This document shows positions 8,750-58,518 of a DNA stretch of 64,000 nt, piece by piece. The stretch is from positions 5,048,001 through 5,112,000 of the forward strand of contig NC_089735.1 in NCBI RefSeq assembly GCF_035083965.1. Direction: 5' to 3'. The stretch is from Branchiostoma lanceolatum. Taxonomy: Eukaryota > Chordata > Leptocardii > Amphioxiformes > Branchiostomatidae. The position numbers and the translations under genes were made by a program. The notes below the pieces were generated by a model, which saw only the letters and a list, made by a program, of their open reading frames with translations, was not told where the DNA came from and made no database searches. Within the stretch, counting starts at the first letter, position 1, and each line of letters starts with the position of its first letter.

Positions 8750-8809
8750 CATGACGTGGCCATTGTAAACAGGGGAGGTGAAAGGTTTCCACACGTCCCA
8801 GTCATCGCG

Positions 8810-27689: not shown

Positions 27690-28300
27690 CAGTAGGGGTT
27701 AGATCCGTGAGTGCTGAGGCTGGGGAGAAGGAAGGTCTTTCAGCACTAAGGACGGGGAAGTTCTTTCAATACTAAGTGCAGAGGACAGGGTAATGTCCTC
27801 TGGCGCTGAGAATAGGGGACAGCAAGGGTCCTTCAGCACTAAGGACAGGGTACAAGGAATGCCCTTCAGTACTAAGGACTGGGTACAGGGAAGATTATTC
27901 AGCACTAAGGACATGGTACAGGGAATGTCCTCCAGTACTAAGGACAGGGAACAGGGAAGGTTCTTCAGCACAAAGGACGGTACAGGGAATTCCCTTCAGT
28001 GCTAAGATCAGGAAACAGGGAAGGTACTTCAGCACTAAGGTCAGGGGTAAAGGGAAATCCCTCCGGCACTACAGGTAGGGAAGGTTCTGCAGCAATATAT
28101 ACAGGGTATAACTACAAGGGAGGCATTCAGAACTTAGGACATGGAAAGTCCTTCAGCACTGAGAAAGGGTATAAGGAGGGTCATTCAGCACTAAGGAAAA
28201 GGGGTAGGGGATATCCTTCAGCACTAAGCAATTTTTCCAGCACTAAGGACAGGGGCAAGGAAGGTCTTTCAGCATTAAGAACATGTGACAGGAAAGTATA
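27690..28300 (+). repeat. Minisatellite block B (same family as block A)
   Basis: About fifteen imperfect units contain CTTCAGCACTAAGGACAGGG and variants, separated by GTACAGGGAAGGTTC or similar. Orientation and unit match block A about 7 kb to the left. The frames 27699-27971 (-) and 27793-28005 (+) are translations of the repeat. Confidence 0.85.
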
Positions 28301-28763: not shown

Positions 28764-30142
28764 CTATGATCCCATGAAGGAGATTCCTCTTTCAGTCACA
28801 GTGAATTCACATTTATGTCCTCCTGGCTTTATTGTAGTTGCACTAAAAGTAGTCATCTCTTTACCCCCTTGTTCTGTAGATATATCCTGTTTCACAGCTC
28901 TTGAGAATACATATCGATATTTTATGAGATTTTGCCAAGCATGGGACATGTACTCATAGTGCTCCACATTTTCAACTTTTGTTTTCTCAACTTTTGGGGA
29001 CAATGATGTGGAGTCTTCCTTTTGGCTCTTCCTACTTTTGTGACCAAACAAAGCTTGCTTAGTAGCAATGAGGACAATCCCATAGTCACTGAGGTATCTA
29101 GACAGAATGTCAACACATCGTCTCTGGTTTAGCTCCTGCCCAGATATGCTGTCGTCCGTGCTCCTGTCCAGCCAGTAGAAAGCTGAGATGCTGTCCACTA
29201 TCAGTAAAGACACCTCAGAGGAGGATGCAATGATGTGTTCCAATGAGTGCAGAGTGATCACTAACTGTTCACTGCTGTTGCACCTCACAATGTACAGTCT
29301 GCGCAGGCACTGTTTCACCCTGTCCTCGTCTGTAGTCTCTAACCTGCCTTCAAGTACTGTAACGAGCCGGAGGATGTCAAAGTGGTAGTCAGTGTCAACG
29401 AACACCACGCCAGCCTCCAGCCCTCCCTGGGACGTTGGCAGGATGCACCTGGCTGTCAGGTGCAGCAGCATCTCCGTCTTGGCCGTTCCTTCTGGTCCGT
29501 AGAATTCTATGGCATCTCCCGACTTCGGGCCCGCGTCAGCCCTGAAGAGGGATGTCTCCAGCTGGATCAGTGAAGGTCTGCTGCCCAGCCTAGCCAGCAG
29601 CTGCAACAAGAACAGGGGTACGACTATGAAAATTATGCATTTCATTTCTGGTTATTATTTATTCTACCCTGGAATGAATACGAGTCGCATGCATGAGTTG
29701 AGTACAGTAGAGTTTACGGTCAGGTACTCAGGTGGCATTATAACGTTATGTGTACGTCATGCTTCACAGTGAGTGAGTGAGTGACTGAGTGACTGAGTGT
29801 ACTTATAAACAGACATTTTGTGGAATGCACTTGTTTCTGTAACACAAGCTAAACTACAATTGTGATAGTGTTCAGATATATTGCCAAGACGGATTGACCT
29901 AGGTGGGATATATTTGTGTGTGTTGGGGGTTGAATAATAAAACAAACACAAGCAGAACGTGAAGTTTAGACCTAAGAAACAACACTGTGGATGAGTGTCA
30001 GTCCAATATCTTCATCCCAAACGTTACCTTGTATTATCCTTTGTATAAAATGCTCACATTTCTTCAACGTTTTCTCCAGGAAATAGCTAAAAAGTAGGAT
30101 TTTCTCACGAACCTGTGCTCCACTCTCCCTGGACGCCGCCAT
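28764..30142 (-). CDS. XRCC2: DNA repair protein XRCC2 (RAD51 paralogue)
   Basis: XRCC2 is part of the BCDX2 complex (RAD51B-RAD51C-RAD51D-XRCC2), which supports RAD51 filament assembly in homologous recombination in the nucleus. Coding exons are 30142-30113 (ten codons, MAASRESGAQ) and 29600-28764, with a phase 0 junction; the product is 288 aa (human 280). The second exon opens with LLARLGSR as in vertebrates. It contains a Walker A region GPEGTAKTE (residues 45-53, Lys51), then RCILPTSQGGLE and DTDYHFDILRLVT, then a Walker B region SLLIVDSISAFYW with Asp146. The glycine before the Walker A lysine is alanine here. Human XRCC2 has three exons; exons 2 and 3 are fused here. The ATG lies in GC-rich sequence (GGCGGCGTCC). 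A - strand AATAAA lies at 28370-28365. Confidence 0.95.
29601..30112 (-). other. XRCC2 intron 1
   Basis: This single intron has donor CAG followed by GTTCGTGAG and acceptor TTCTTGTTGCAG. It contains a GAGT/GACT simple repeat near 29770-29800. No other gene is seen in it. Confidence 0.8.
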
Positions 30143-33600: not shown

Positions 33601-34553
33601 TTTGGGACTCTTTCAACACAAAGAACTGAACATTCAATGCCAAACAATTGACAGACATAAATGCTATGTGGTGTATGCTGATCATCATCATCAGTCGACG
33701 TGCTTACGTATGCTGATAGTTGTTTAGTAAAACTAAAAGAACTACATGTTCTCCCTAAAGGAGAACAAATCTACTGGAATGTTCCATCCATCTTTCAATC
33801 AGGATAGGTATAAAGGCAGTTAACTTATACTCACAGGAACCATTTTCTTAGCAGTACCTCAATCTTGAATGCCTATCATTGGTCTGTATCCATGATTAAA
33901 GATTCTGTGAGGAAAAATGTGAGTGCAACTTTGAGTTTGAAGTTCACTGTCAGTGAATTGCAGGGTCTTGATGACATCTTGATTGAAAGATTCAAAATAA
34001 GTTAAGGGAAAGGGTGCCTTTTTGGGAGGAGTTAATCAGTCCAGTTGTTGAGTAGAAGAGAACAGCTGTGTCACAGAGGAAAGGATGTTGTTGGTTCTTA
34101 TCTGGTGGGACTGTCCTGTAGCTGATGATTGGTTCTGATTGTAAGAGGATGTCACATCTTCCTGTGTTTGGGAGGTAGAACTGAAATCAGACATTTGCTC
34201 TTAACTGTGTATGGACTTTGGATATTTATGCACTGTAACATGTTTTTGTTTTTGATTAATTGTGGATGATGTTGTGTATAGTGCTTGTGTAAAAATCGAC
34301 ACAATTCAGCTTTTATGTAACGCTGCAAGGTTGATTTAATAAACTGAATTGAATTGAATGTAGCCAAGGCTGCCCTACTATCATTACAGAATATGCTGTG
34401 AAATATGTAATATCCTCTTCATGTGGCTCTCCTCAGACATGTCACTCCCACCTTAACCCCCGCTCTGAAGGAACATATTATACCGGTAGTTTAAGTTTTG
34501 TTATGCTGATGATGACTGTTGTTTTCTTTCTTGTCTTCCCACTTTCTCTGCCC
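30661..34553. other. Intergenic stretch or 5' intron of CRK/CRKL
   Basis: No exon is recognised. It contains a 97-base palindromic element (33130-33226) and otherwise AT-rich, unstructured sequence. If the CRK/CRKL first exon lies near the XRCC2 promoter, most of this stretch is its intron. Confidence 0.5.
33130..33226. repeat. Palindromic MITE-like element
   Basis: The arms TATAGCTAGCCTGAGTG through AGTTCCAGGG and CCCTGGAACTAACAAG through AGGCTAGCTATA pair over about 45 bases with several mismatches. Related arms appear near 19700 and at about 39765-39840, so it belongs to a dispersed AGCCTGAGTGTCATC family. Confidence 0.7.
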
Positions 34554-34570
34554 AGAAACCAATTAAGATG

Positions 34571-35500
34571 GCAGCATCCAACTTCAACCCCCATGACATG
34601 GGGCAGTGGTACTTTAAGAATATCCCCCGCCAGCAAACAGAGGACATACTACAGGGAAAGATGCATGGGACATTCCTAGTACGCGACAGTAAAAGCTGTC
34701 CCGGGGACTACGTGCTCTCAGTCAGTGAAAACACCAAAGTCAGCCACTACATCATCAACAGACTCCAGAAGGGCTTCCGGATTGGTGACCAGGATTTCGA
34801 TGACCTGCCGGCTTTGATCGAGTTCTACAAGATACACTACCTTGACACGACCACGTTGATTATTCCGGCACAACGCCCGCCCGGGGGACCCGCAGAACCC
34901 CTGCGTCCGTCTCACGCGCCAGCTCCCGCCGTCATGGAGGAATGCGTTAGAGCGCTGTACGACTTTGACGGAAACGATCCCGAGGACTTGCCTTTCAAGA
35001 AGAACGAAATACTGGTAGTCGTTAGAAAGGACGAAGACCAGTGGTGGACTGTACGCAACAAGGACGGCAGAGAGGGTTCGATTCCCGTTCCGTACGTTCA
35101 AGTGCTGCCACCTGGTCCAACAGCCCGTGCAGGCGCTGCGCCATCTCACCCCCAGCAGCCTCACTCCCCTCCCGGCTACCACGACCCACAGGCGGCTGGT
35201 GTAAGAAGTGATTCAGGACCGTCTTCTACAGCAGCGCCTGCAGCAGCGTCGACACCCCACCCCCTGCCCAACCCACAGAACGGCCCCGTGTACGCGCGCG
35301 TCATACAACAGAAAATCCCCAGTCCTTATGACACGACGGCGTTGACCCTGGAAGTAGGCGACATCATCCGGGTAACCAAGATCAATGCCAGCGGGCAGTG
35401 GGAAGGAGAACTCAAGGGGAAAACAGGACATTTCCCCTTCAATCATGTTAAAATTATCGACCCTAGTAATCCTGAGGAAAATGATTCATCTTGGAGCTAA
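34571..35500 (+). CDS. CRKL: CRK/CRKL adapter protein (SH2-SH3-SH3), partial start alternative
   Basis: This is a cytoplasmic adapter that links tyrosine-phosphorylated scaffolds to guanine-nucleotide exchange factors and ABL. The frame opens at ATG 34568, one codon before the start given here; taking that first ATG gives 310 aa. The SH2 domain covers about residues 12-100, with WYFKNI and the phosphotyrosine-binding FLVRD (Arg39). The first SH3 covers about 125-180 (ALYDF, WW, PVPYV) and the second about 240-298 (VYARVI, GQWEGE, GHFPFNHVK). The whole coding region is in one exon, unlike vertebrate CRK and CRKL; a CTCTGCCCAG acceptor 15 bases upstream shows an intron in the 5' UTR. The linker holds Tyr204 in GYHDP, a YxxP motif. 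CRK and CRKL split within vertebrates, so the symbol stands for the shared ancestor. AATAAA is at 36289-36294. Confidence 0.95.
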   Translation, partial: AASNFNPHDMGQWYFKNIPRQQTEDILQGKMHGTFLVRDSKSCPGDYVLSVSENTKVSHYIINRLQKGFRIGDQDFDDLPALIEFYKIHYLDTTTLIIPAQRPPGGPAEPLRPSHAPAPAVMEECVRALYDFDGNDPEDLPFKKNEILVVVRKDEDQWWTVRNKDGREGSIPVPYVQVLPPGPTARAGAAPSHPQQPHSPPGYHDPQAAGVRSDSGPSSTAAPAAASTPHPLPNPQNGPVYARVIQQKIPSPYDTTALTLEVGDIIRVTKINASGQWEGELKGKTGHFPFNHVKIIDPSNPEENDSSWS

Positions 35501-40451: not shown

Positions 40452-43400
40452 ATGAGTGAGTTTGAAGCCGCCAGTCAGAAGCCCCACAGGGCACGCCAAC
40501 ATGGCCGCAAGCAGGAGAAGAAGAAGGCAAAAACTACGCAGGATGAAAACCTGTCGGCCAAACAACGGAACCCCAAGGCCTTCACCGCACAGTCAGCCGT
40601 GCGCATGGCCAGGCAATACAGGAGGTAACTGGTCTGTTTGTATGTAGCTTTGATACAATGTGTGGATTTGTGAACAATTCCCACAAGAAAGGTACAATGT
40701 ATATACAATGTGTATGACTCAGTTATAACAGATATTATCCTATATGATATAGGTAGGATATAGAGCAATAGTAATAGTGTTATAAGTTACTTAGAATAAA
40801 TTATAAACTTGGGTGCATTACCACATTGTCCTTGTCTCTGTTGAAAAGCAAGTGAAAACAGGATTTTAAAAACCTTGTAAGGTTACATTGCACTAAGATG
40901 ACCATTATTCCTACCGACAGGGCTCAAGATGTGAAGACCAAGAAACAGCATATCCCGTACGTGGATAGAACCCCCCTGGAGCCCCCTCCCATCGTGGTAG
41001 GGATTGTGGGACCCCCCAAGGTGGGCAAGTCTACCCTGATGCAGTGTCTGATCAAGAACTTCACTAAGCAGAAACTGTCCAATGTCCAGGGACCTGTCAC
41101 TATTGTGTCTGGTAAGGGAATAGTGCATCTCTGCTAGAGAATAACTGTTGTCACTTTAAAGGTTATTAGATATTTGAAAAATGTATCACTGCATATTATT
41201 TTATGTGTTGCAATTATTTCAAAGTCAAGTACTTCAAAATCTTACACTTACAGTCTATACACATCATGTCAAAAGTGATACCTGTAACCATAACACTAAC
41301 AGACACTAAACTAATGCAAAGATAAAGAGGACACTCAGAATTGTGATCATCGGTCTTTTATATCTACATCGATTAGTGTGTTTTTATGCAAGTGTCTCTT
41401 TTGGCAGATTGTCTTTGACACTTTAGGTATGACTCATGAGTTGGTTAGAAAATAAGAGTGACTATATGGTTAGAAGTGTAATGAGAATTTAATGTTTCTT
41501 ATGACTTATTCAGAAAGTCAATTTTAAATCCACACAGACCTAACCAGTGCCTATTTCTACCAGTACTCAGAAGTATATTGATTCAGTTATGTTGTGTTAT
41601 GTTGTGTTGTGTTAAAGTTGAAAAATTTTCCCACCAGGCAAAAAGAGGAGACTGACTCTGTTTGAATGTGGGAATGACATCAGCTCCATGATAGACATCG
41701 CCAAGGTTGCTGACCTGGTAGGTACTTTATGTCCTGGGTGGTTTGACAGTTTTATTATCTCCATGAAAAATGGAGATATAGTTTTGGGTGTGTCTGTGTG
41801 TGTGTGTGTGTGTGTGTGTTTGTTTCCGGACAACTGTAATCAGCATAACACAAGAACCTCTTTATGGATTACAATGAAATTTGGTCTGTGGGCGGGTGTT
41901 GTGAAGCCAAAATTCAAGGTCGATTTTGAGCCCCCCGGTATGTGACCTTAATACTGCAGCAGAACTTCTTTTTTTCTATCTTTTGACCTGGACATGCTAT
42001 GGTCTTGATTTTTTGGTGGCAGATAGCTTGTGATGTAATGAAGACTTGGTGTGGGTTTGGGCCCCCTAGCAGCTTGTTCTGGAACTGCAGGGGCGTTATT
42101 GTGAAAATCTTCTAAGGAGAATAACTGAACAGAGGAACGTTGGATTTCCATGATATTTGGTATGCAGGTAGCTTGTTCAGAAACAGGACCTCATGGACCT
42201 GGAACAACCAAACCACATCCTCTTTACAAAAGGTTTATGAATAGGTACATAACCAGTGGAAGCTAGATTAAGATATTTAGAATATTATTCAATAGATGAA
42301 ACCAATTTCTTTTGTGACATTTGCACAGGGACATATATGGGTTTTACTGATTAATTGTATTGCCATTGGGTGCCATGTTATTTAGTTTAGTGACGTCGGT
42401 GTGGCTCAGTGGTTAGAGCGTTGGACTTTAAACCAATAGTTCACGGGTTCGATGCTCACCATGCCCAGACGTTGTGCCCTTGGTAAAGGCACTTAACACG
42501 TCCTTCCCTGGCTCTTCAGGTACTCAGTCTAAAAGTGTGCCAAAAATACACTACAGATTTTGGTTGCTGATGTGCTATCATCTAGCACATTTGCTATTCA
42601 ATGTAATGAATTGAATGTGATCCATTATTTCAGGTTCTCCTGCTGATCGATGCCAGTTTTGGTTTTGAGATGGAGATTTTTGAGTTCCTGAACATTTGCC
42701 AAGTGCACGGCTTCCCCAAGATCATGGGCGTGCTCACCCACCTGGACCACTTCAAGAACAACAAGCAGCTCAGGAACACCAAGAAGAGACTCAAGCACAG
42801 GTTCTGGACAGATGTCTATCCTGTGAGTTAGCCTTTCTAAGAGGAACAGATCAGGACCAGTCCTGACTCAATTAGCAGTTCAACCAATGATAACATGGCA
42901 ATTAGCAGTTCAAACAATGCGAGAGCGACTTTGCATGGCTGTCAAATGTCTTGTATTTCTATGTTTTATTTTTGCAGACCTAAATGGGCAGGCCTAAGGG
43001 ATTGGCCTATTATCCACAACCTGGGGTATAGAGTATCACAGGTCACTGGGCATTTGAAAATCTCACTAACTTGAAAGGTGTAGAGGTTATGACAAAAATG
43101 AAGACATCATATAGAGTAAAGCATGCACTTTTGTCAAACATAACTACACATCCAAGTTGAAGTACACATTTTAAGGCTTTTAAAATGTTGATTGGGATTT
43201 CCAATATCTTCTGACTTACCAAACTTAAAGGTGACTAGTTTTTACCCTGTTATTATCTAGCCTTAGCTGATCTCCATAACAATGAGGGAAAATTACTAGT
43301 ATTGTCCCTGATATATTTTGATATATTTCTGTGACTATGGTGTTGGTATCACTTTTTGCATAACCTTTTGTGTAATTGTTGTTATAGGGTGCGAAGTTGT

Positions 43401-46400
43401 TCTACCTGTCTGGTATGGTGTATGGAGAGTACCAGAAGACTGAGATTCACAACCTCGGCCGCTTCATCTCCGTGATGAAGTTCCGCCAGCTCCAGTGGAG
43501 AACAACCCACCCCTACGTCCTCGCAGACAGGTGGGTCCTGCATAACAGACTCATGAACATGCTTTTGTGTGCTACTCTCTCTCTCTCCAATTTTACGTCT
43601 TTTATTCCCCATCATATGAATGGGGGAGCCCCAGAACTCCTCATCAAGTGCAAGTCTTTTTTGTAGCAAGAGTTTTTATGGCTGGATGCCCTTCCTAACG
43701 CCTACCCAAACCCTACTTCTGGGCTTAGGACATGGGAAATATGTTTTAAGTGCCTTTCCCAAGGGCACAACGTCTGGGTGCATGTCCGGACATGTCTGGG
43801 TACTCCACTGGGGATTGAACCTGGGTCTCGTTGGTTCATAGCCAGATGCTCTGCCACTATGCCACACAGATGCCACATGCAGTCAAAAGACAGGTTGACA
43901 TATGGATGACATGCATGCAACTTGTGTAACTGCAACTCGTGTATTCTCGCTGAAACAATCGTTGATACAACACCTACCAATGACACCAGACAGGGAAGCA
44001 TGTTCTTTTAGTTGACCTTTGATTGAGACTTTCAGCAATAAATTGAAATAAAAATCTTAGGGTTAATTGCGTATTCTCAAAATTACATTTGTTTTTTTTA
44101 GTCCTTAGTGGCTAGTGTTACTTAGATCTATTTTGTCGTTGTTTTTCATGTAGGATGGAAGATCTAACAGGCCCAGAAGATGTGAGACAGAACCCGAAGT
44201 GCGACAGGACGGTGGCGCTGTACGGTTTTCTACGTGGGGCTCACATGAGAGCCAACAGCAGTGTGCACATTCCAGGTAACTCTTCTATAACAATGGGATT
44301 TTCCCCATAACTATCATGGATAAATTGTGGTCAAGTATAGTAGGAGCATCCTTAGTTACAGAATGGAGGAAAGTGCTGCTATGGTGGTTGCTGTCTTTCT
44401 ATTCATTCATTCATTCATTCATTGAGATTTACCACATTTATGGAAGGATTGACCTAACAGGTGACTATCACCTTTGCATGAAGTTATTCCAGAGACCAGG
44501 CTGAAAGGTTTGATCGACCCACAGTGTGATAGACTCCTTATGAATAAGTATGGTGGAGTCTTTAACATGTCTTAGGTGTGACTCTCCTCAAACAAATTGA
44601 AGACTTCCAGCTTTACTTCCCATCCAAGAGGATGTCTTAAGGATGTCTCTAGCTACTCATTTTCACCTGAGTCAAGTGAAGAATTCGGTGGAAAGTGCTT
44701 TTATCAAAGGGCACACCACTGGGGCCTACCAGGGATTTGAACCCCAAACCCAACATCCCTAACCACAAGCAACCCTGCCACCTTTCCAGGTTGTGGCGAC
44801 TTTGTGGTTCAAGACGTCAGCATGCTCCACGACCCTTGTCCCCTCCCCGACAAGGAGAAGAAGCGAGCGCTAAACCAGAAGGAGCGACTGATCTACGCTC
44901 CCTTCTCCGGGGTGGGGGGGATCGTGTACGACAAGGACGCTGTGTACATAGACCTGGGAGGGAGCCACCATCATCAGAAGGAACCTGAGCAGGTAAAGGC
45001 TGTCAAGTTTGAATGATATGCAGATTTCTACATTATGTATGTAAAGGTGACATGATCCTGTATATATATATACACATGTACAGGGGTTCATCTAAATCAA
45101 GAAAGAGGGGCGCTGTGCCCTCTTGTCTCAGCCCAGTGCCCCCTTGTCAAATTCAGATTTTAGCTTAATATCTAGCATACACATATAATTCGCTCCCTCG
45201 CCTGTGTGTGCTCCCTCTTATTCAATTTTTCTAGAAAAACCCCTGCATGTATATATATTGATGTATGTTTGTTCTGGTATGCTAACAGTCTTCCATTGCT
45301 TTAACAATCACAATATTTTCTTGAAAGAAATTGAATAGAAGTTATTTGGATCATACATTCTGATAAATCAGGAAAGCTCTGGCCAGCCCCAAAGAAAACT
45401 TTTCCTTTTGTGAAGTGATTGTACCATGAAGCAATGAATCCTTGTCTGATTACAATGGAAAATTTCCTTCATCCTTAGATCACCCCTGGTTCCACCCATG
45501 AGTTGGTATCTTCCATCATTGACACCAAACACACTATTGACACCAAGATGGCTGCCAGCGAAGTCAGCATCTTCAGGGGATCTGTGCCAGTCACGTCCAC
45601 ACAAGTGGAAAGGTAAACTGTAGCACCTGAAGCAGTATAAAGTAGAATGGATTCATTCCTCAAGCTAACCGACATCTTTCATACTGCAGTCGTCCCTCAG
45701 TAAGACATCTGGAGCCGCATAGTTCTCGTCTAGAACTTTTATTCAGTCTGTTACCAGGACTAGGGGGCCTAAAATCATAGCAGTACCCAACAAGTCAAAT
45801 ATGAAAATGTGATCAACTTACACAACCATGTGTTTTTACCTAGCCGACGTTTTGATGACTGTCTGCCAACTTCCTCAGGGCAATAATGACTGGTTCCATT
45901 TTGCTAGATGTCACTGCTGCAGTGTGAAGAATTGATGGATGTCATCCATATAAGTCAGTGTGACCTTAGTTTCCAAAGCAGAAATGACATCTAATGTTAG
46001 TTTCCAAAGCAGAAATGACATCTAATGTTAGTTTCCAAAGCAGAGATGACATCTAATGTTAGTTTCCAAAGCAGAGATGACATCTAATGTTAGTTTCCAA
46101 AGCAGAAATGACATCTAATGTTAGTTTCCAAAGCAGAAATGACATCTAATGTTTGTTTCTGTGATGTGCAGCTCAGCATCAGGACCACAGGAAGAGATGG
46201 TGACCGATGAGACAACAGGAAGGACCCGGAGGAGGGCAGTGTTTGAGGAGGAGGAGGAGGGAGGAGAGAATAGCAGTGAGGAGGAGAGAGATGATGAAGA
46301 GGTATGTGAAGAGGTAGCTGATGACAACAAGATACCATGTACTTGTCTTGTGTGTAAAAATGTTAACATTACAGTACTGTACAGTGCCCAGTTATCAGTT

Positions 46401-49400
46401 TGCTGACTACGGTTGTTCAGGGATAACTGTCTAGTGGAGAGGGGGCCTAAAGGAAGATAGATTGTTGATATATCCCAAACACTGAAGAGGTTTGTTGATG
46501 AAGGTCTAAATTTCTTTCTGTTCAGGATGAAGATGGAATGACACAGGTGGATCCAGAGGTGTCTTTCAGAACACCTGGAGATGGACATGCTTCAAAGAAA
46601 AGAAAAGTGGTAAGAGTTTGAAAAGTCTGTATGATACAGAATAAATGTCTTATTCAAATGTTCTATTTTTATCTCACTCTCAATATTGTATTCTAATTAG
46701 CAACACTACGTACAAAAAATTTGTTCTTGTGACTCACTATCTATGTTCCTAAAACTTAAATGAGATTTTTAAAAATTCTCAGAATCAAAAATTGACCATG
46801 TTGTCACTATGAAGTTGGTTTTGAGGTTTTCCACCTTTGCTGTCGTTATTGTTGTGTTTATTTGTCATTGAGATAAATGTACTCATAAGTCTTTCATTGT
46901 ATATTTTTTGGCCCAGACGGGACAGGAAAAAGATGGGTACACTTTTGCCGACAGCGACGACGACCTGGAAGTGGATTGGGACATCCTGCACCCTCCTGGA
47001 AAAACACCAGTCCCCAAAATGACTGCCACCTCAAAAACTGTGAAAACAACAGAAGAAGAAGACAACACTGACAAAGACGATGATTCAGAGGATGATGATG
47101 GAGATGAGGAGATGGATGTTGCCATGGAAACTACTAAGGAGAAAAATCCTTCCACACAGTTGGGGAGAGACTCATTAAGGACAAAGAACGCACCCAGAGA
47201 AACCACTACAGAAGTTGATGTTCCCAAAACAATGGCCAACTTAAAACAGGATGAAGGTTCTGCTGGCATTGTGGAACAGAAAGCAAAGAAGGTGGATTCC
47301 AAGGCTGAGAAATCTGATTCTGAAATGAATAGCAACATGTCTGATTCCTCTGGTGGAGAGGATGTGGATGAGGATGCAGGGAGTGAGTTAGATGATGATG
47401 ATGATGATGGAGATAGTGATGATGAGGTGGATGAAGAAGAGGATGATGATGAGGACGAGGAGGAGGACAGTTCTATTGAGGAGTATGGAGATGAGGAGGA
47501 GAAAGATGAGAGGATCACACCAGACGAAACAAGTGCAGTTCTACCCTTGGAGACAGAGGGCGCATTGAAGTGGAAGGAAAATCTTTCCCAGAAGGCGACC
47601 GATGCATTCCTGCGTCGCCAAGCGGACACACCCAACCTGAGGAAACTGGTCTATGGTAGAGTGGCTGAGGACCAGTCTTCAGGTAGGACTTCTAAATTAT
47701 ACTGGTCACTCATTACAACTCCACAGTTTGGAGAAACACTGGAATTGGTGAAACCTAACTTAAATATATGCTTAATATCAACTTCTGATGTCATGATTAT
47801 TGGTTGATTGCTTGATTGCTTGCTTGCTTGCTTGATTGATTGATTGATTGATTGATTGATCTTTCCACAGATGAGGAAGATGATGAACTTGGTGGACTGT
47901 TCAAAAGAACAACGAAAAAGAGTGAGGGAAGGAGGGGAGGACCCAATGATCTGGACTGTGCCAAGTTTCCCATTACAACGGGGGAGGCCAGGGAGTTTGA
48001 AGAGGTGAAGATTCCATTTGTTTGGTTCAGATGACGTGTAAAGCTCTTTATCAAGGAATAACCTATCAGTTTTAAGAACTTAACTGAATGCTTGCATATT
48101 TTCTACAATTTCTGAGTTTCAATGTGAAACCACTTTCACTGCTCACTATTGTCCTGCAAAACAAAGATTTTCTATTAAAGCTTGGCACCTAAACAGGTTT
48201 GAATTTGTGTTCATAGTATGATGGGAGATATCAAGAGGCCAAACAAAGTTTTTTTGTGTTAAGAATCTTCAACCTTTTCACTGATGCCTAACCCTGTAGC
48301 TAATGCTAATTTGGTGTCTAAAGGATTCATTAGCAAGGAGCGTATTAAGTTACTGTAATTCAGGCTCTCAAAGATTTATCTACATTTCCCCCTCTTTTAT
48401 TATTTGTTACCTTCTAGATCTACGACTTGATCAAGGACTGTTTCGTGACTGGAGACTGGGGTACCCAGGATGCAAAGAGGCAGCTGGAGGAGGACGAGGC
48501 TCTGTATGGGGACTTTGAGGATCTTGAAACCGGGGAGACCCATACTGCACAGACAGAAGAGAAGGAGGAGGAGGGTGGTGAAGACCAGAAGGATAACCAG
48601 GAGGACCAGAACAGTGGAGAGGTGGTTTGAGGAGCTACACACATATGCACCTCTCTCTTGATTTATTGTTGTAGTTGCATGGTATTGTTATTTCATTGCT
48701 GAAGACAGTTGACAGTATAGTTGAAGACATATTTAACTCACACAGAATATTTACAAAATTTATCTTTTTCTTAAATCCCTCTTTCTTAACCACAGACAGT
48801 TGACAGTATAGTTGAAGACATATTTAACTCACACAGAATATTTACAAAATTTATCTTTTTCTTAAATCCCTCTTTCTTAACCACAGACAACGTCGGTAGA
48901 CAAGACGGCACAAGAGAAGCTACTTGAGAAGAAGAGGAAACTGAAGGAGTTGTTCAATGCTGAGTACGACAATGAGGAGGGAGGAGAGTCTTATTACGAC
49001 AGCCTGAAACAGGAGTTAGAGCAGCAAGCACAGGTAAGGGGGCACACCCCATGGCCAGTTTGGGGCACAGTCACATTCGTGAAAGGTTGTTGTAGTACTT
49101 GCACGATTTTGATGTCGTAAGATTTTCAAGAAGGCAGTGACAGAACCATCATCATCATCATCGGTCTTCCTCTTACGAGGTGAAGCAAATAAAGTTCGTT
49201 TTCCAGAATTTCTTGTCATTCATTACAGAAAGGAGTTCCTGTCCTTCCAAATTAGTTTCAGTTTCTATGAGTTTCTTGAGAGTTGTGATTGGTCGACCAA
49301 TCCTTCTGTTTGCGTCTGGGTTCCAAAGCAGAAGCTTTCCCGCTGTGACAGAACCAATTGACAACAACTCCGTTGGCAAGGATCTACGACAGCATCTTCA

Positions 49401-52400
49401 TCAGCAAGACAGCTAAATTTTGTACACCACATGCACGACGATCCCAAGAATTCCTGTAGCGAGTGTAGGAGCCCCAATAGTAATCGGATGGCACCCAGGC
49501 TAGACAGTGACAAGTGACCGTACCAATTCAATTTTCTTTCCTGTGGTTAGGAGTTCTTCATACAGACTGATGTTTTGCTTGACTCTTTTTCATACCTCAT
49601 CATTTATTATGACTCAAGAACACAATGTTGACTACAAACACTGTTTAGATGAACCGGGCGGAGTTTGAGGACATGGATGCGGAGACGCGTGCCCAGTACG
49701 AGGGTTACCGACCGGGGATGTACGTGCGCCTGGAGGTACCTGGCATGCCCTGTGAGTTTGTCACCAACTTCGACGCCTCCTACCCGGTGATCGTTGGTGC
49801 CTTGATGAGTGGTGAGGACAGTGTAGGATATGTGCAGGTGAGATCACTTGTAGTCACACCATGTAAGCCTAATACTGCAATATACGTGAATGTTATTTAT
49901 CACAATGCCTCTGTATAAAGATGGGAAAGTCTTTAAACAGGCTGTGAAATCAGGACCTATCTGACCTTGGCTCTCATTATGATTTTGAGTTGTGTTTCGA
50001 AAATAATTTAATCAGGTTGGTAGAACATAGGATATTTAGAGTTTCTTTTATCACAACCGCAAAAGCGCCACCTGCATCAGCTACTTATAGCGGTGAGAAG
50101 CAGTACTCCAGTCAGAAGCTCTGAAGAAGGTGTCTGACAGACACCGAAACGTCAGCAGGTGAGATTACCTGGTTGTGATAAAAGAAACTCTAAATATCCT
50201 GAGTTGTGTTTGTTTGAGTTATTTCTATAAGTTATTACCCTCATGTTCAATGGTTGCTACTTTATGTTAAATTGTTGTGAATGTATGATTTGGTAAGATT
50301 ATGTTTTGGAATTTTCTTTTGTATCGTGATTTGTTATAATTTTGTGACGTTACACTATTTGTACAGTTACACTGGAAATGACAAAACTTAACAATTTCCT
50401 TTAAGATGCGGCTGAAGAAGCATCGCTGGCACAAGAGGATCTTAAAGACGCGTGACCCCCTGATCTTCTCTGTCGGCTGGAGAAGATTTCAGAGCGTGCC
50501 GCTGTACAGCATCCAGGACCACAACATGCGTAACCGCCTGCTGAAGTACACTCCAGAGCACCTGCACTGCAGCACCACCATCTGGGGTATGTTGGTACTG
50601 CAGCTGTTTGTTTGTTTTGTTGATTGAACATAATATATAACTAGTTCCATCTGGTTAGAAAGGAAATGATTAAATGAAATGATGAGCAGAGGCAGCCAGA
50701 AACCTGGTGTATGCAAGTGTTTTTTTCCCGCACAAATGATTTAATGACATCAAACTGGCATGTTAGTCTCAATCAATCAATCACTCAAACTTGTACATGT
50801 ATGTATTGATTCTGTTTTCAAGAAGGAAGTGTGGGCCCCTTAGATTTTAGCCAGATTAGCAATGATTGTTCTGTAAATGATAGGATGTTGTTGCTTTTTG
50901 CCATGTAGTGCCTAGTAGCACTTTGGTCTGCAAGTTTCCTTGGTTGTTAACCCTTCCCCTTTTAACATACTCAATGTACCACCTCAAACACAGGACTGCC
51001 ATTTTACGTCCCTTCCGATGGGTGGTTGCAGCCCCAAACTTCCCAGGATTTGAACTGTGTTTTTCAGTTCCCAACTAATTGGAACCAGGAGCTCAACTGT
51101 GAGGCTGCTACCAGTTGAGCTACAGGGACATCCCCACAAGAATGGTAGGAACATGATAGGAAATGATCTGGTCCAACCAACCGTGCCTTCTGTCCACTCC
51201 CAGGTCCCATCACCCCACAGGGCACAGGCATCCTGTGTGTCCAGTCCGTCGGGGATCGGTCGTCAGACTTCAGGATAGCCACCACGGGAGTCGTGGTGGA
51301 ACTGGACAAGTCTGTCAACATTGTGAAGAAACTCAAGCTGACGGGATACCCGCTCAAGATATACAAGAACACAGCATTTATCAAGGTATTCTTATAATTA
51401 CCACCCTTTAAGACACCATTTTAGTCTTTTACATTCCAAACATTAAAAAAAATTCCTGATACCGCCCTTTTAGTATTTTACATTCCAAACGTTGAAAAAA
51501 ATTCCTGATACCACCCTTTTAGTCTTTTACATTCCAAACATTGAAAAAAATTCCTGATACCACACTTTTAGTCTTACATTCCAAACATTGAAAAAAATTC
51601 CTGATACCGCCCTTTTAGTCTTTTACATTCCAAACATTGAAAATAATTCCTGATACCTCCCTTTTAGTATTTTACATTCCAAACATTGAAAAAAAATCCT
51701 GATTTCCAGTTCTTAGGATGGGATGCTTGTTTGTTTATCTATTTGCACAACAAGAAATGACATGATATGATAAACAATGTGCAGAAAGAGGGAAGAAGCA
51801 TACATGTCTTATACAACCCCCTCCTCCATTATGCTAATTGAAATTGACAATAGTACTAAGGCATGATCAGGTTCATTGTGCCTGTTGAGACATGTTTCGT
51901 TTTTGCTCGTGCAGGACATGTTTAACTCCATCCTGGAGGTGGCCAAGTTTGAAGGAGCCACGGTGAGGACAGTGAGTGGAATAAGGGGGACCATCAAGAA
52001 AGCTATCAAGGCTCCGGAAGGGGCCTTCAGGGCCACGTTTGAGGACAAAATCAAACTGAGCGGTACGTTATCACGAAAGCACATCTGTGTTAGTAGGTTA
52101 CTAGTACATGATTTAAGTTAAGATTTGCCATTGAACTTGGAAATTGTGTGGCCTCAATCTCAATTCTACATGTATTTGTGTTTGTATATAGTATAGGACT
52201 CAAGGTAGAATAGTAATCATGATATAGTATGTTTGTGCATATCTGGTGCCCAGTCCGCAACACTAAAGCCCCCATTACCACATGTTCTACCCCACAGATA
52301 TGCCCAGTCCAAGTTCCCAGACTGTACAACCCTCTGACCAACCTCTCTATCCCACAGAATGATATAGTATTTGTGCATATCTGGTACCCAGTCCGCAACA

Positions 52401-54503
52401 CTAAAGCCCCCTTACCACCTTCTGTTCTATCTCACAGATATAACATTTGTGCATACATGGTGCCCCGTCCAAGTTCCCCCATAGTACAGCCCTTTCACCA
52501 CCCTCTGTTCTATTCCACACAGATATAGTGTTTGTGCGTACATGGTGCCCCGTCCAAGTTCCCCCATAGTACAGCCCTTTCACCACCCTCTGTTCTATTC
52601 CACACAGATATAGTGTTTGTGCATACATGGTACCCAGTCCAAGATCCCCCATAGTAGCCCTTTCACCACCCTCTGTTCTATTCCTCACAGATATAGTGTT
52701 TGTGCATACATGGTGCCCCGTCCAAGATCCCCCATAGTAGCCCTTTCACCACCCTCTGTTCTATTCCACACAGATATAGTGTTTGTGCGTACATGGTGCC
52801 CCGTCCAAGTTCCCCCATAGTACAGCCCTTTCACCACCCTCTGTTCTATTCCTCACAGATATAGTGTTTGTGCGTACATGGTGCCCAGTCCAAGTGCCCA
52901 GACTGTACAACCCCCTGACCACCCTCCTGTTGGCTGAGAAGGACAAGTGGTCTGGGATGAAGACTGTAGGACAGCTCAAGTTTGAGAGGAGCATCAGGAA
53001 CAACCCCAGTCAGGACTCGCTCTACAAGGTGAAGACTGGTTCGGTTTAGTTTAGTTCATGTTTCAAAACTGCAGAGTAGTTTCTATCAAGATACGCCTCC
53101 ACAGTGTGTTCAAATATGGATTAAGATAACTTGCAGTGTTGACATTCTTGCATTGTTTAGTAAAATACTGGAGTTTACTTCTTTCTATTCGTTTTGATTT
53201 GAATAATCCGTCATTGGCAACAAATAAAAAAGCTGTAGAAGACAATGATGGCCAGCCTCAGTGCTAAGCATTGACATGCAGCAAGGATGATGATGTTTGT
53301 TTATTTAGAAGATCTCCATTAGGGACAGTACATGATATATACTGTAAATGCAGAAAGGTTTGAGGTGCCGTGGTTTTATGTTCGTGGTTTTTGCGTTGAA
53401 ATCTTTACCGCAAACTTAAAACCACCGCGAAAAGCTATTCCATTGTGTGGCTGTAGCACTACCATTGTTTCAAAAGCAAACTCAACATTTCAAAAACATT
53501 TCTGCATGTACAGTATTTCACAAATCTTCCTGGAGTCGTATGATGATGATTTGTTTTTTTTTTCAGAGCAAAAGTTGTGACTATGACTATGTGATAACTC
53601 TTTCTTGATTCTGTCCCTCCCTGTAGCCCGTAGAGAGAAAGCCCCAGAGGTTCCGGCCCCTGAGAGTGCCAGTTAAGCTTCAGCAGCACCTTCCCTTCAA
53701 AACCAAACCTAAACAGAACCCTGCCAAACCAGTCAAGGTTATGGACAGGCCCGTTGTCATCATGGAACCGCACGAGAGAAAGGTAGGATAATCTTTTTTT
53801 TTTTTATTGTTAGACATTCAGAAAAATAATAAGACTTAGTGACTGTATAAACTGTCTAATTAAAGCCCTAGTTACACAGTCAGGATCTTCCCACGACTTT
53901 GCTCTTGGCAAGTCCCCAACCAGAGATGGTGCTGGGTTGGGAGTAGCCTGGAATCCATCCTATTCTAGCTCCAGTTTGATTGCATCTTAGAAGAACATGA
54001 CTTTCCCAACTTTGATTTGCCGAAATTCATAGTCGGCTGGCACAGACAACATTTAAAGACTAGTGGGCAACCTCCCAGACGAACTCCTTGACCTTGCTTA
54101 CGATAACCTTGCTCTGGACTAAGTCCCAACCATGGTCTGGAGAAGGTCGGGAGCCAATGCACTACAGGGGCTTAGAGTGAAGTAGGTGGTGTACTACCGG
54201 GAAATTTTTTGTCAAGTCTCTCCCTGCAGTGCAGTTCTCATATTCTTCCATTTGTTCCAGGTGGCAGCTCTGATGAAGGCCCTACGATCTGTCCACAAGG
54301 ACAAGAAAGCCCAGGAGAAGCAAAAGGTCAAAGAACGATACCAGAACTACAGAAAGCTCCTGGAAAAGGAGACTGCCAAAAGGGAAGCACGCGAGAAACA
54401 GTCCAAGAAGAAGGTCTACTCCATGATGACTCAGATGGAGACAAAAAGGAAAAAGAAACAGGGACTCAGTCATGATGTGCCTAAAATGGGCAAGTTTGAA
54501 TAG
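40452..54503 (+). CDS. BMS1: Ribosome biogenesis GTPase BMS1
   Basis: BMS1 is the nucleolar GTPase of the small-subunit processome; with RCL1 it drives early 40S assembly. Coding exons end to end: 40452-40624, 40921-41111, 41638-41717, 42634-42822, 43388-43530, 44154-44275, 44790-44992, 45479-45612, 46172-46301, 46526-46609, 46917-47682, 47871-48004, 48418-48621, 48887-49033, 49649-49837, 50406-50586, 51204-51385, 51915-52062, 52859-53028, 53627-53782 and 54261-54503. All phases agree and give 1322 aa (human 1282). The G1 loop is GPPKVGKST (residues 88-96), followed by [14 protein letters not shown] and DASFGFEME. The large exon at 46917 encodes an Asp/Glu-rich middle. The C-terminal part keeps [29 protein letters not shown] and a Lys-rich tail. 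AATAAA is at 54657-54662. Confidence 0.97.
41730..42600. other. BMS1 intron 3 repeats, including a SINE
   Basis: From about 41750 there is a dispersed repeat with ATGGAGATATAGTTTTGGGTGTG, a TG run and TTCCGGACAACTG. A tRNA-derived SINE (+) occupies 42392-42600: GTGGCTCAGTGGTTAGAGCG is A-box-like, GGGTTCGATGC is B-box-like, and TGCCCTTGGTAAAGGCACTT is in the body. Confidence 0.6.
43540..43880 (-). mobile_element. SINE copy in BMS1 intron 5, reverse orientation
   Basis: Read on the - strand this shows the body motif TGCCCTTGGGAAAGGCACTT, with a B-box-like GGTTCAATCC upstream of it. The part nearer 43650-43690 (GGCTGGATGCCCTTCC on the + strand) is its 3' tail. A shorter related fragment in the same orientation lies at about 44690-44785, right against the next exon. 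Confidence 0.6.
45966..46151 (+). repeat. 31-bp tandem repeat, six copies, next to a BMS1 splice acceptor
   Basis: The unit TTAGTTTCCAAAGCAGAAAT followed by GACATCTAATG is repeated six times with only A/G changes at one position. The array ends 20 bases before the exon that begins at 46172, so the last intronic bases are repeat plus a short TTTGTTTCTGTGATGTGCAG acceptor. Confidence 0.95.
48705..48886 (+). repeat. Perfect 91-bp duplication of an intron 3' end
   Basis: Bases 48705-48795 and 48796-48886 are identical as far as I can compare them. Each copy ends in TCTTTCTTAACCACAG, so the splice acceptor of the BMS1 exon at 48887 is present twice, 91 bases apart. Use of the upstream one would add 91 bases and shift the frame. 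Confidence 0.95.
49150..49400 (-). mobile_element. LINE reverse-transcriptase C-terminal remnant
   Basis: The - strand frame contains [15 protein letters not shown], then TTL, then a KKFWKT segment. This resembles the end of non-LTR retrotransposon polymerases, where an RRxGRP motif precedes a helical segment with a closing W. Just downstream on the same strand is a GATGATGATGATGATGG run, like the simple-repeat 3' tails of some LINEs. No further polymerase domain is visible, so this would be a 5'-truncated dead copy in a BMS1 intron. Confidence 0.4.
50029..50200. mobile_element. 172-bp MITE with perfect 30-bp inverted ends
   Basis: The ends 50029-50058 (AGGATATTTAGAGTTTCTTT and on) and 50171-50200 are exact reverse complements. 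The interior has a small stem, GGTGTCTGACAGACACC, followed by GAAACGTC. It lies in a BMS1 intron. No target duplication is obvious. Confidence 0.85.
50930..51135 (-). mobile_element. tRNA-derived SINE copy, reverse orientation
   Basis: Read on the - strand it starts GGGGATGTCCCTGTAGCTCA, then TGGTAGCAGCCTCAC, then AGTTCAAATCCTGGG. This is the same family as the copies at 10941 and 26677, here in a BMS1 intron close to the exon at 51204. Confidence 0.65.
51398..51705 (+). repeat. About 50-bp tandem repeat, six copies, in a BMS1 intron
   Basis: The unit contains CCCTTTTAGTCTTTTACATT, then CCAAACATTGAAAAAAATTC, then CTGATACC. It begins a few bases after the donor of the exon ending at 51385. 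Copies differ by single bases and small length changes. Confidence 0.9.
52230..52858 (+). repeat. 83-85-bp array made from the next exon's 5' end plus acceptor
   Basis: Units read CTGTTCTATTCCACACAG, then ATATAGTGTTTGTGCATACA, then TGGTGCCCCGTCCAAG. That is the acceptor and first codons of the true BMS1 exon at 52859. Copies of the acceptor AG end at 52437, 52522, 52607, 52690 and 52773, with more diverged ones at 52297 and 52357, before the real one at 52858. In-frame use of the 52690 site (168 bases) would meet a stop codon, so the array looks like pseudo-exons, not coding sequence. Confidence 0.9.
53340..53520. repeat. Dispersed repeat copy in a BMS1 intron
   Basis: TACTGTAAATGCAGAAAGG, GTGCCGTGGTTTTATG and AACTTAAAACCACCGCGAAA mark the same family as 9515-9700 and 40080-40230. 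Confidence 0.6.
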
Positions 54504-56351: not shown

Positions 56352-58484
56352 ATGAAGGCAACTATGTGGCTGATAGCAGTGGTTCTCGCCTGCGGTTGGC
56401 GCGAAGGCAGATCATGTAACACGAGACCGAGACCGGGTGAGTTTTCTATACTCAATAATGGGGCATTCAAAAGGAACTCTATACCTGATAACAAGGGTAG
56501 CTTCATAAATGTGGGGCCTCACCCGGAAAAATTATGATCAATTTAATCAAATGGCGCGCATGTGTCTTCCCAAAAAGTCTTTTATGCGCAGTTTGATACA
56601 ATGTCAGTTCTTCGCAGTGCCTGCGTCATGAGTATAAAGAACTACTAGTATTCGACAAGACTACGTGTCAAACATGTCGGCCTCAGGCCAATAGTTCAGT
56701 AATCACCTGATATCATTCTAAGTCTGATATACAAAGCGTGAATTTATCTCCGAATTTTTTAATTATCCAGTTGTAGAGTTTGAATCCTCTCATATATTGT
56801 TTACCAGGATGTCTAACATTCGCAAACGTAACACTTCTAAAAGTTTAGAACCGGTTGACTGACACGGAAACGAATTGCATTAGATTGACCATTCTTTGAA
56901 CATACATCAGGGGAATAGAGACGATTAATCTATGACGATGTCTGGCATGCATGTACACAGCACATTACAAAATCACCATATCTTGCACAATTCTACATTG
57001 GACCAAATCCTACCATACGTAATACTGAAATATGATGGTTGTTTTGTTCATGACAGGCTACAATACGGGCAATAGAAAACCGGAGGAGTGACCGTGCACG
57101 AAATCACAATTTTGTCGTCTTTTATTCTGTCAAGGGTGGCCGAGCTTTTCTCAGCTACTAAACAACTACCCTAGTTACCAGTCCATCAGTTGGGACGGCC
57201 TGGTGGACCAGGAGGGTCTTCCTGCCTGGCTGAAGGGGGTGTCGGACAAGAACACGTGCGCCATGAGGGTCAGCCGTGCGCTCACTCACGCGGGTAAGGG
57301 CTAAGGCAGTTACTCTCTATAAACAGCCTGGAAAAAATTATTAGACGTAATTACTGTTTCTATTGTCGAAATAGACAATCAATGTTATCACATTCTTGAA
57401 GAATATTGGCTGATTACAGTGTACAACATGTGCTCACACTCAACAAACTACCAATGCGCATGGTTGTAAGATACACTTTTTCACGCATTCCCAAGGACAA
57501 CACAGTTATATGAGCAGTAGCTTCTGCTGTGTAGATACGGTTACTGATCGCCCGGTAGACGCCAGAAGCTATTATACAGCATCAATACTGGAGTGCCCAA
57601 AGGATCCATTCTCGGGCCAATAATCTTTCTAATCTACATTTAAATCGATATTCCCTCGCAAATCCCCTGAGCTCCAAATCCCCTGTGCCTCCCTGACTCC
57701 GAGCTTTCACACCAAGGACACGCTTTGCAACTTCCACAGGGGCAAGTCATCCTTTCCGCTTCTTCCATACTCAACATTATAGAAGAAAGTTACACGCTAA
57801 AAATTTATTTCCTCGTGAATTATATCTCTATGGATCAAGCTCACTCGTGGTAGCTTCTCTGATGGGTGTAATCTAAAAATTAAAGATTTTTAAGGCTAAG
57901 GAAACAGACAGCTGTGATCGCAATGAGCTTCGTTTTCGTTTTGTAGCACTAAGATATTGTCCCTTCATAGGAAGGACGATTGCGCCATGGTCCTGCGTTA
58001 ACTGGTCCGGCGTGAGAGACAGCCAGAGCCGGCCCTACATCATCCGTGTTGCCACCATGCGCTGTTACCTGGAGGACCAGTACGGCCCTGCTGACGTCAC
58101 CGGAAGTAGTGAAAGCGCTTTCATGGTAAGAGTAAAGTGAGAAAAGTAAAATTGCAGCCATTTATGCCTTTCAGTACCTACAAGAGGCTCCGAAGCATGG
58201 GCAGAGAACAGCATGCAAAATAAAACTGAAATGTGGATGACTTATCTGAACATTGTTTTGTCCGTATCATAATCATTGCTTAATATAACTTTTGAAAAGT
58301 TCTACGAACCTTCATGTCATGTCAAGTTACTGTAGGACGTCACGAGCTCACCAACAGGATATAGGAGTAGTCTCTTTAGTTGTCATCTGTGTATTTTTCG
58401 TCCTAACAGGGAACCAGGGGTATTATCGTGTTCCAAACCTGCGGGTTCCAGGCAGCGACCGGGCACGGGGAACTGTTACTTTAG
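56352..58484 (+). CDS. dae4: Domesticated Tae4-type amidase effector (secreted), 3' frame broken
   Basis: Tae4 enzymes are bacterial type VI secretion effectors that cleave peptidoglycan stem peptides; animals, including lancelets, acquired such genes and use them against bacteria (dae genes). Exons are 56352-56436, 57135-57293, 57947-58125 (or from 57971; both acceptors are in frame) and 58410 onward, with phases 1, 1 and 0. Residues 1-22 form a signal peptide (MKATMWLIAVVLACGW). Exon 2 has WPSFSQL and the nucleophile region NTCAMRVSRAL with Cys70. Exon 3 has YIIRVATM and YLEDQYGPAD. Exon 4 has RGIIVFQTCGF and ATGHG with the catalytic His (about residue 160). The frame then stops at 58482-58484, only five residues after the His. 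A second frame, shifted by one base, stays open over 58474-58518 and looks like the family's C-terminal end. The break could be an assembly error, an allele or real decay. Confidence 0.8.
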
Positions 58485-58518
58485 CGACTGTAGTGACATC
58501 AGGCTGTTCGAATTCTAA

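What the first reader, a model, noticed from the sequence alone, without database searches (positions are those of the whole stretch)
56352..58518. A bacterial type VI amidase gene living in an animal genome, with introns and a signal peptide
The four exons show the Tae4 hallmarks (Cys in NTCAMRVS, His in ATGHG) joined to a eukaryotic secretion signal by consistent splice phases. It sits 2 kb from BMS1, so it is not bacterial contamination. Established knowledge: tae genes were transferred to several animals as dae genes used in antibacterial defence, and dae4 is reported in lancelets. What is new here is the full local gene model, including a separate signal-peptide exon and two in-frame acceptors for exon 3.
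Basis: partly seen in the sequence, partly recalled or inferred. Interest (0 to 1): 0.85.

Follow-up and report, generated by a model that had tools for sequence, protein, structure and literature searches.

The report
Broken lancelet copy of bacterial amidase
This lancelet gene descends from a bacterial cell-wall-cutting weapon and has animal introns and a secretion-like leader, but this copy has lost part of its last exon and probably no longer makes a working enzyme.

Summary
The gene is real. Four exons at 56352-58484 encode a 157-residue protein with a signal-like N-terminus and a Tae4 domain (Pfam PF14113, 52.6 bits against a cut-off of 27). The protein is identical to an NCBI "uncharacterized protein" of Branchiostoma lanceolatum on an 18.5 Mb contig.

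The frame carrying ATGH stops at TAG 58482-58484. All 22 other animal-clade relatives found read [GS]HVD..[DN]G..C here; this copy is about 29 nt short. It loses the Asp two residues after the catalytic His, the cysteine loop and the last strand. The rest is not decayed: 1 of 60 conserved columns changed, against 1-8 in relatives. The break therefore looks recent.

Relatives in lancelets, hemichordates and sea anemones form one clade (100/100). This fits the known domesticated dae4 family (recalled from Chou et al. 2015, not held). Most likely this is a recently disabled, possibly segregating, copy of that antibacterial family.

The parts
56352..56436 (+). exon 1: start codon, signal-peptide-like leader MKATMWLIAVVLACGW and linker; intron phase 1
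   Evidence: hydrophobic core up to 2.9 Kyte-Doolittle over residues 7-15; same kind of N-terminus in P0002, P0004, P0005, P0006, P0008
57135..57293 (+). exon 2: start of the amidase domain with the catalytic Cys (KNTCAMRVSRAL); intron phase 1
   Evidence: tblastn with P0004, 71.7% identity
57257..57259 (+). codon of the predicted nucleophile Cys (residue 70)
   Evidence: invariant Cys in all 29 rows; corresponds to Cys44 of Salmonella Tae4 by alignment
57971..58125 (+). exon 3 as in the NCBI protein; intron phase 0
57947..57970 (+). 24 nt between the two in-phase exon-3 acceptors; would add 8 residues; no support from relatives
58410..58484 (+). exon 4, coding part: GIIVFQTCGFQAATGHGELLL then TAG at 58482-58484
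   Evidence: NCBI protein P0001 ends at the same residue
58464..58466 (+). codon of the predicted catalytic His (residue 152)
   Evidence: invariant in the 29 rows
58467..58470 (+). deletion junction: 4 nt where relatives P0004 and P0003 have 33 nt (11 codons), so about 29 nt missing and the frame broken
   Evidence: residue counts
58468..58518 (+). stranded remnant of the old C-terminus in another frame: GNCYFSDCSDIRLFEF then TAA
   Evidence: tblastn with P0004, 82% identity in this frame
40856..52118 (+). BMS1 exons upstream (animal chromosomal context); only 40856-41134, 49649-49915 and 51867-52118 were tested

Best explanation
The locus is a Branchiostoma lanceolatum member of the animal Tae4 family (dae4-type): a bacterial peptidoglycan endopeptidase gene taken up long ago, fitted with introns and a secretion leader, and duplicated in lancelets. 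Intact members most likely work as secreted papain-fold cysteine peptidases that cut the gamma-D-Glu-mDAP bond of bacterial cell walls with a Cys-His-Asp triad whose Asp lies two residues after the His, the Serratia/Agrobacterium arrangement. This copy has been disabled by an out-of-frame loss of about 29 nt just after the His codon. The early stop is in the last exon, so the mRNA would probably escape decay, but the short product lacks the acid residue, the cysteine loop and the last strand, and is expected to be inactive or unfolded. Shown: family, exon structure, frame break, conservation of the missing part in 22 of 22 animal relatives, unspoiled remainder. Inferred: secretion, substrate, loss of activity, recency.
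For: Identity with NCBI protein P0001 of B. lanceolatum, 157 of 157 residues. Pfam Tae4 52.6 bits. 22 of 22 other animal-clade proteins keep HVD..[DN]G..C. tblastn places the last two pieces of relatives in two different frames, with the piece between them missing. H+11, where Salmonella and Enterobacter Tae4 have their Asp, is Gly in 21 and Asn in 1 of 22, while H+2 is Asp in 22 of 22; the two triad types are described in PMC6277958 (passages). In Salmonella Tae4, single mutants of Cys44, His126 or Asp137 lost toxicity, and so did single Cys135 or Cys139 mutants (PMC3695027, passages). The AlphaFold model of P0004 (pLDDT 83.9) puts strands at 169-174 and 190-195; the second has no counterpart here. 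Private changes at columns conserved in the other lancelets: 1 of 60, others 1-8 of 46-67. Animal clade 100/100.
Against: NCBI's pipeline kept this model as a protein rather than a pseudogene (what transcript support it had was not visible). Chance has put a Glu at H+2, so some activity cannot be excluded. A legend in PMC3695027 says that replacing Cys135 and Cys139 did not affect growth relative to wild type, against its text. The structure job for this copy failed, and the tool was then off. No lancelet DNA other than the window was available, so recency rests on protein conservation alone.
Confidence: 0.75

Rival explanations
1. Segregating null allele: B. lanceolatum carries both intact and broken alleles at this locus, and the assembled haplotype happens to hold the broken one. 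This is a sub-case of the best explanation.
For: Unspoiled remainder of the gene. Very high polymorphism in the species: one haplotype of a B. lanceolatum assembly covers only about 61% of the k-mers, both together 99.84% (PMC11907188, passages).
Against: No second haplotype was available; the only other record of this locus, P0001, is probably from the same assembly.
Confidence: 0.4
2. Assembly or sequencing error: the real gene is intact.
For: A single disabling lesion in an otherwise conserved gene.
Against: About 29 nt is missing cleanly, not a homopolymer slip, and the flanks read well on both sides. NCBI's record has the same end, although it may derive from the same assembly.
Confidence: 0.1
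3. The short form is a working protein: it keeps Cys and His, with Glu in the place of Asp, or has a non-catalytic role such as binding peptidoglycan.
For: Conserved body, annotated as protein-coding, Glu at H+2. In Tse1 a Cys at the position equivalent to Asp137 is described as having no effect on activity (PMC3695027, passages).
Against: 22 of 22 animal relatives keep the missing part; the last strand and the cysteine loop are gone.
Confidence: 0.08
4. Bacterial contamination in an animal assembly.
For: The Tae4 domain is otherwise bacterial.
Against: Introns, relatives in several lancelet, hemichordate and anemone assemblies, an 18.5 Mb contig, BMS1 exons on the same strand.
Confidence: 0.01
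5. The animal genes come from several separate transfers, or spread between animals, rather than from one old acquisition.
For: In one search hemichordates group with anemones (95/81) and lancelets stand outside, which is not the species tree; cnidarian rows are not one clade. Found only in three animal groups among the hits listed.
Against: All 23 animal rows are one side of a branch at 100/100 against 41 bacterial rows. An anemone-like ORF (P0030) joins the family exactly where window exon 4 begins, hinting at a shared intron position.
Confidence: 0.25

Closest known systems
dae4 (domesticated amidase effector 4) genes of animals, Chou et al. 2015 (recalled; paper not held)
   Same: Tae4 domain, animal genome, introns, secretion-like leader; lancelets recalled as one of the reported hosts
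   Different: This copy is frame-broken in the last exon and lacks the Asp, the cysteine loop and the last strand
Branchiostoma relatives P0002-P0007 and P0009-P0012 (NCBI/UniRef; B. belcheri, B. floridae, B. lanceolatum, B. floridae x japonicum)
   Same: Up to 80% identity (P0002), same leader type, same domain
   Different: All keep the full C-terminus HVD..[DN]G..C...IRLFEF-like
Bacterial Tae4 of Enterobacter and Salmonella (PDB 4hfk, 4j30, 4jur)
   Same: Papain-like fold family; Cys and His aligned
   Different: Their third residue Asp lies 11 residues after the His; the animal proteins have Gly or Asn there and Asp at H+2
Bacterial Tae4 of Agrobacterium (PDB 6ijf) and Serratia
   Same: Asp two residues after the His, as in the intact animal proteins (PMC6277958, passages; alignment)
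   Different: Low similarity (6ijf E 2.9e-7 with P0004); no leader or introns
Tae4 of Giardia muris (PMC7641422, passages)
   Same: Another eukaryote that took up a Tae4 gene
   Different: Protist; described as a recent acquisition there; no sequence comparison made here
Dae2 of Ixodes ticks (PMC11347951 and PMC5986905, passages)
   Same: Bacterial amidase gene turned into an animal antibacterial factor
   Different: Belongs to the Tae2 family (recalled), not compared here; functional in ticks

Membership tests
Tae4 family (PF14113) | profile score above the curated cut-off | tested here: met
   52.6 bits against 27, E 6.1e-14, profile 2-98 of 125
Tae4 family (PF14113) | catalytic Cys and His | tested here: met
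   Cys70 and His152 align with invariant columns
Tae4 family (PF14113) | third catalytic residue Asp (H+11 or H+2) | tested here: not met
   Glu at H+2, no residue at H+11 because the chain ends at H+5
Tae4 family (PF14113) | complete C-terminus with the cysteine loop and last strand | tested here: not met
   chain ends; remnant lies in another frame
functional dae4 (animal antibacterial amidase) | introns and location in an animal chromosome | tested here: met
functional dae4 (animal antibacterial amidase) | secretion signal | tested here: inconclusive
   hydrophobic leader conserved in kind; no signal-peptide predictor or experiment
functional dae4 (animal antibacterial amidase) | descent from bacterial tae4, in the animal clade | tested here: met
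   one animal clade 100/100 that holds the window protein; quick tree 100
functional dae4 (animal antibacterial amidase) | intact open reading frame | tested here: not met
functional dae4 (animal antibacterial amidase) | peptidoglycan cleavage and antibacterial effect | not testable with these tools
   needs protein or animals
functional dae4 (animal antibacterial amidase) | spliced transcripts across the three introns | not testable with these tools
   no transcriptome collection; only the agreement with NCBI's protein

The most novel reading that the evidence does not exclude
The short secreted protein is made, because its early stop lies in the last exon, and has been kept for a non-catalytic job such as binding peptidoglycan or modulating its active paralogs, or it forms a balanced loss-of-function polymorphism in a horizontally acquired immune gene.
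Probability: 0.1. Interest if true: 0.6.

Novelty: new member of a known kind. Interest (0 to 1): 0.32.

Why it matters
It corrects an apparently intact horizontally acquired immune gene into a broken copy, and shows how such genes can be lost as well as gained. If the deletion segregates, lancelets offer natural knock-outs to test whether a captured bacterial amidase matters for immunity. The comparison also suggests that the animal proteins use the Serratia/Agrobacterium-type Asp (H+2), which can be tested by mutating an intact relative.

Tried and rejected
Bacterial contamination was rejected. A second copy in the window: tblastn with ten relatives found strong matches only at this locus. 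A splice solution that would save the frame: nine AG positions in 58330-58440 were tried, and none joins ATGH and the tail; other donors were not tried. Own genome: none held. First genome-contig scan: 2 stretches matched, none confirmed; the second, with a bacterial alignment, gave 36 loci, of which 35 were translated and 18 and 16 used in the two trees. Non-animal proteins used: 32 and 25 of the 123 then held. Rows dropped from the second tree were long or near-identical ones. P0030 was left out of both trees as a gene-model artefact. NCBIfam gave no match, though for a query with two wrong letters. The structure job for the window protein failed; the fold search could not run. The protein search listed 120 of 181 hits, so further animal relatives may exist among the 61 unlisted ones. 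Literature: dae4 with amidase, 0 papers; Tae4 with amphioxus, 0 papers; a five-term search, 0 papers; none of the 20 listed of 2,708 papers held 'dae4'; some searches gave only tick, bacterial and unrelated work in their listings. Chou et al. 2015 is not held.

Full report
What is there. The window holds a four-exon gene on the + strand: 56352-56436, 57135-57293, 57971-58125 and 58410-58484, with GT..AG introns in phases 1, 1 and 0. For exon 2, 57135 is the acceptor that gives an open, phased frame; 57057 is in phase but meets a stop (from the frames printed). The 157-residue product has a hydrophobic leader and a Tae4 domain (PF14113, 52.6 bits, cut-off 27). It is identical, residue for residue, to an NCBI 'uncharacterized protein' of Branchiostoma lanceolatum on a contig of 18.5 Mb. 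That identifies the organism and confirms the gene model, including acceptor 57971. It does not prove transcription, since the support behind NCBI's model was not visible.

The correction. The frame that carries the catalytic His (ATGH, codon 58464-58466) stops earlier, at TAG 58482-58484. The sequence up to 58518 belongs to a different frame, which still encodes GNCYFSDCSDIRLFEF, the family's C-terminus. With relative P0004, tblastn splits exon 4 into a piece at 58398-58475 in frame 3 and a piece at 58465-58515 in frame 1, and the residues between them are missing. P0004 and P0003 have 11 residues (33 nt) where the window has 4 nt, so about 29 nt are gone. Among the other animal-clade proteins found, 22 of 22 read [GS]HVD..[DN]G..C at this place, so the window's state is the derived one. 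Of nine AG positions between 58330 and 58440, none unites ATGH and the tail in one frame; 58336 reaches the tail but loses the His.

What is lost. Published work on bacterial Tae4 says that the family has two kinds of Cys-His-Asp triad: the Asp lies 11 residues after the His in Enterobacter and Salmonella, or two residues after it in Serratia and Agrobacterium (PMC6277958, passages). In Salmonella Tae4, alanine at Cys44, His126 or Asp137 abolished toxicity, and single serine replacements of Cys135 or Cys139 did so too according to the text, while a figure legend says the cysteine replacements had no effect (PMC3695027, passages). In the 22 animal relatives the H+2 residue is Asp in 22; the H+11 residue is Gly in 21 and Asn in 1; a Cys stands at H+9 in 22 and at H+13 in 18. 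I infer that intact animal proteins use the Serratia/Agrobacterium kind of triad. The window protein has Glu at H+2 and ends at H+5. In the AlphaFold model of P0004 (mean pLDDT 83.9, pTM 0.76) the last strand is residues 190-195, which has no counterpart in the window protein. The model of the window protein itself could not be made.

How old the break is. At columns up to the His where the other lancelet proteins agree, the window protein differs in 1 of 60; the eight others differ in 1-8 of 46-67 under the same count. Its end branch, 0.14 in one tree and 0.18 in the other, is in the range of the other lancelet rows. The stranded tail is also still readable. So nothing but the one lesion suggests decay; I infer that the break is recent. 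One haplotype of a published B. lanceolatum assembly covers about 61% of k-mers, both 99.84% (PMC11907188, passages), so a segregating allele is quite possible. No other lancelet DNA could be searched here.

Descent. Profile searches found relatives in lancelets, hemichordates (Ptychodera, Glandiceps, Saccoglossus) and sea anemones (Exaiptasia, Actinia, Actinostola, Nematostella), then bacteria (the latter listed 120 of 181 hits). In a tree of 64 rows the 23 animal-clade rows, two of them from unnamed sources, form one side of a branch with 100/100 support; a quicker tree of 73 rows agrees. Within animals the order does not follow the species tree: hemichordates join most anemones (95/81) and cnidarian rows are not one clade, so vertical descent alone is not shown. 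An anemone-like ORF from an unnamed contig (P0030) becomes alike to Exaiptasia exactly at the residue where window exon 4 begins (42 of 46 identical), which hints at a shared intron position.

Surroundings. A BMS1 GTPase exon (40856-41134; human BMS1 E 2.2e-30) and two Tsr1/BMS1 C-terminal exons lie upstream on the same strand. The nearest of these ends 4.2 kb before the gene. No second Tae4 copy lies in the window.

Most likely working. Intact members: leader-guided secretion, a papain-like fold, cleavage of the gamma-D-Glu-mDAP bond of bacterial walls (the bond as stated for Tae4 in PMC7641422, passages). This copy: the stop is in the last exon, so by the usual rule the mRNA escapes nonsense-mediated decay, and a short, probably inactive protein may be made. 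These steps are inferred.

Known or new. Domesticated amidase genes in animals are known (Dae2 in ticks: PMC11347951 and PMC5986905, passages; dae4 in lancelets recalled from Chou et al. 2015, not held). Two searches of the held library for dae4 with amidase and Tae4 with amphioxus found no paper. The gene is thus a new, broken member of a known kind.

Noticed in passing
window 8642-9469 (+) and 16400-16771 (+): A SAM-domain exon (Pfam SAM_1) and a PAP2_C exon (Pfam), probably one gene of the SAMD8/sphingomyelin-synthase kind (name recalled).
   Followed up: partly
window 28767-29651 (-): An exon with a Rad51-family domain (Pfam, E 2.4e-13), XRCC2-like by recall.
   Followed up: partly
window 34490-35497 (+): An uninterrupted SH2-SH3-SH3 reading frame (Pfam), CRK-like by recall.
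   Followed up: partly
window 52414-52899: Tandem array, period 85, 5.8 copies, 93% matches, between BMS1 exons; further arrays at 27827-28056, 45966-46159, 48703-48889 and 51414-51703.
   Followed up: no
protein P0011 (B. floridae): Named a C-type lectin domain protein by UniRef but matching only Tae4 in Pfam; it holds a second, partial Tae4-like stretch before the full domain. A lectin-amidase fusion or a gene-model error.
   Followed up: partly
protein P0010 (B. floridae x japonicum): About 20 extra residues exactly at the exon 3/exon 4 junction of the window gene, as from a partly retained intron or another donor; suggests that the intron position is shared.
   Followed up: no
protein P0030 (ENA contig, source unnamed): ORF whose last 46 residues are 91% identical to Exaiptasia Tae4 after an unrelated, intron-like stretch; probably sea-anemone DNA in a metagenome collection.
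   Followed up: partly
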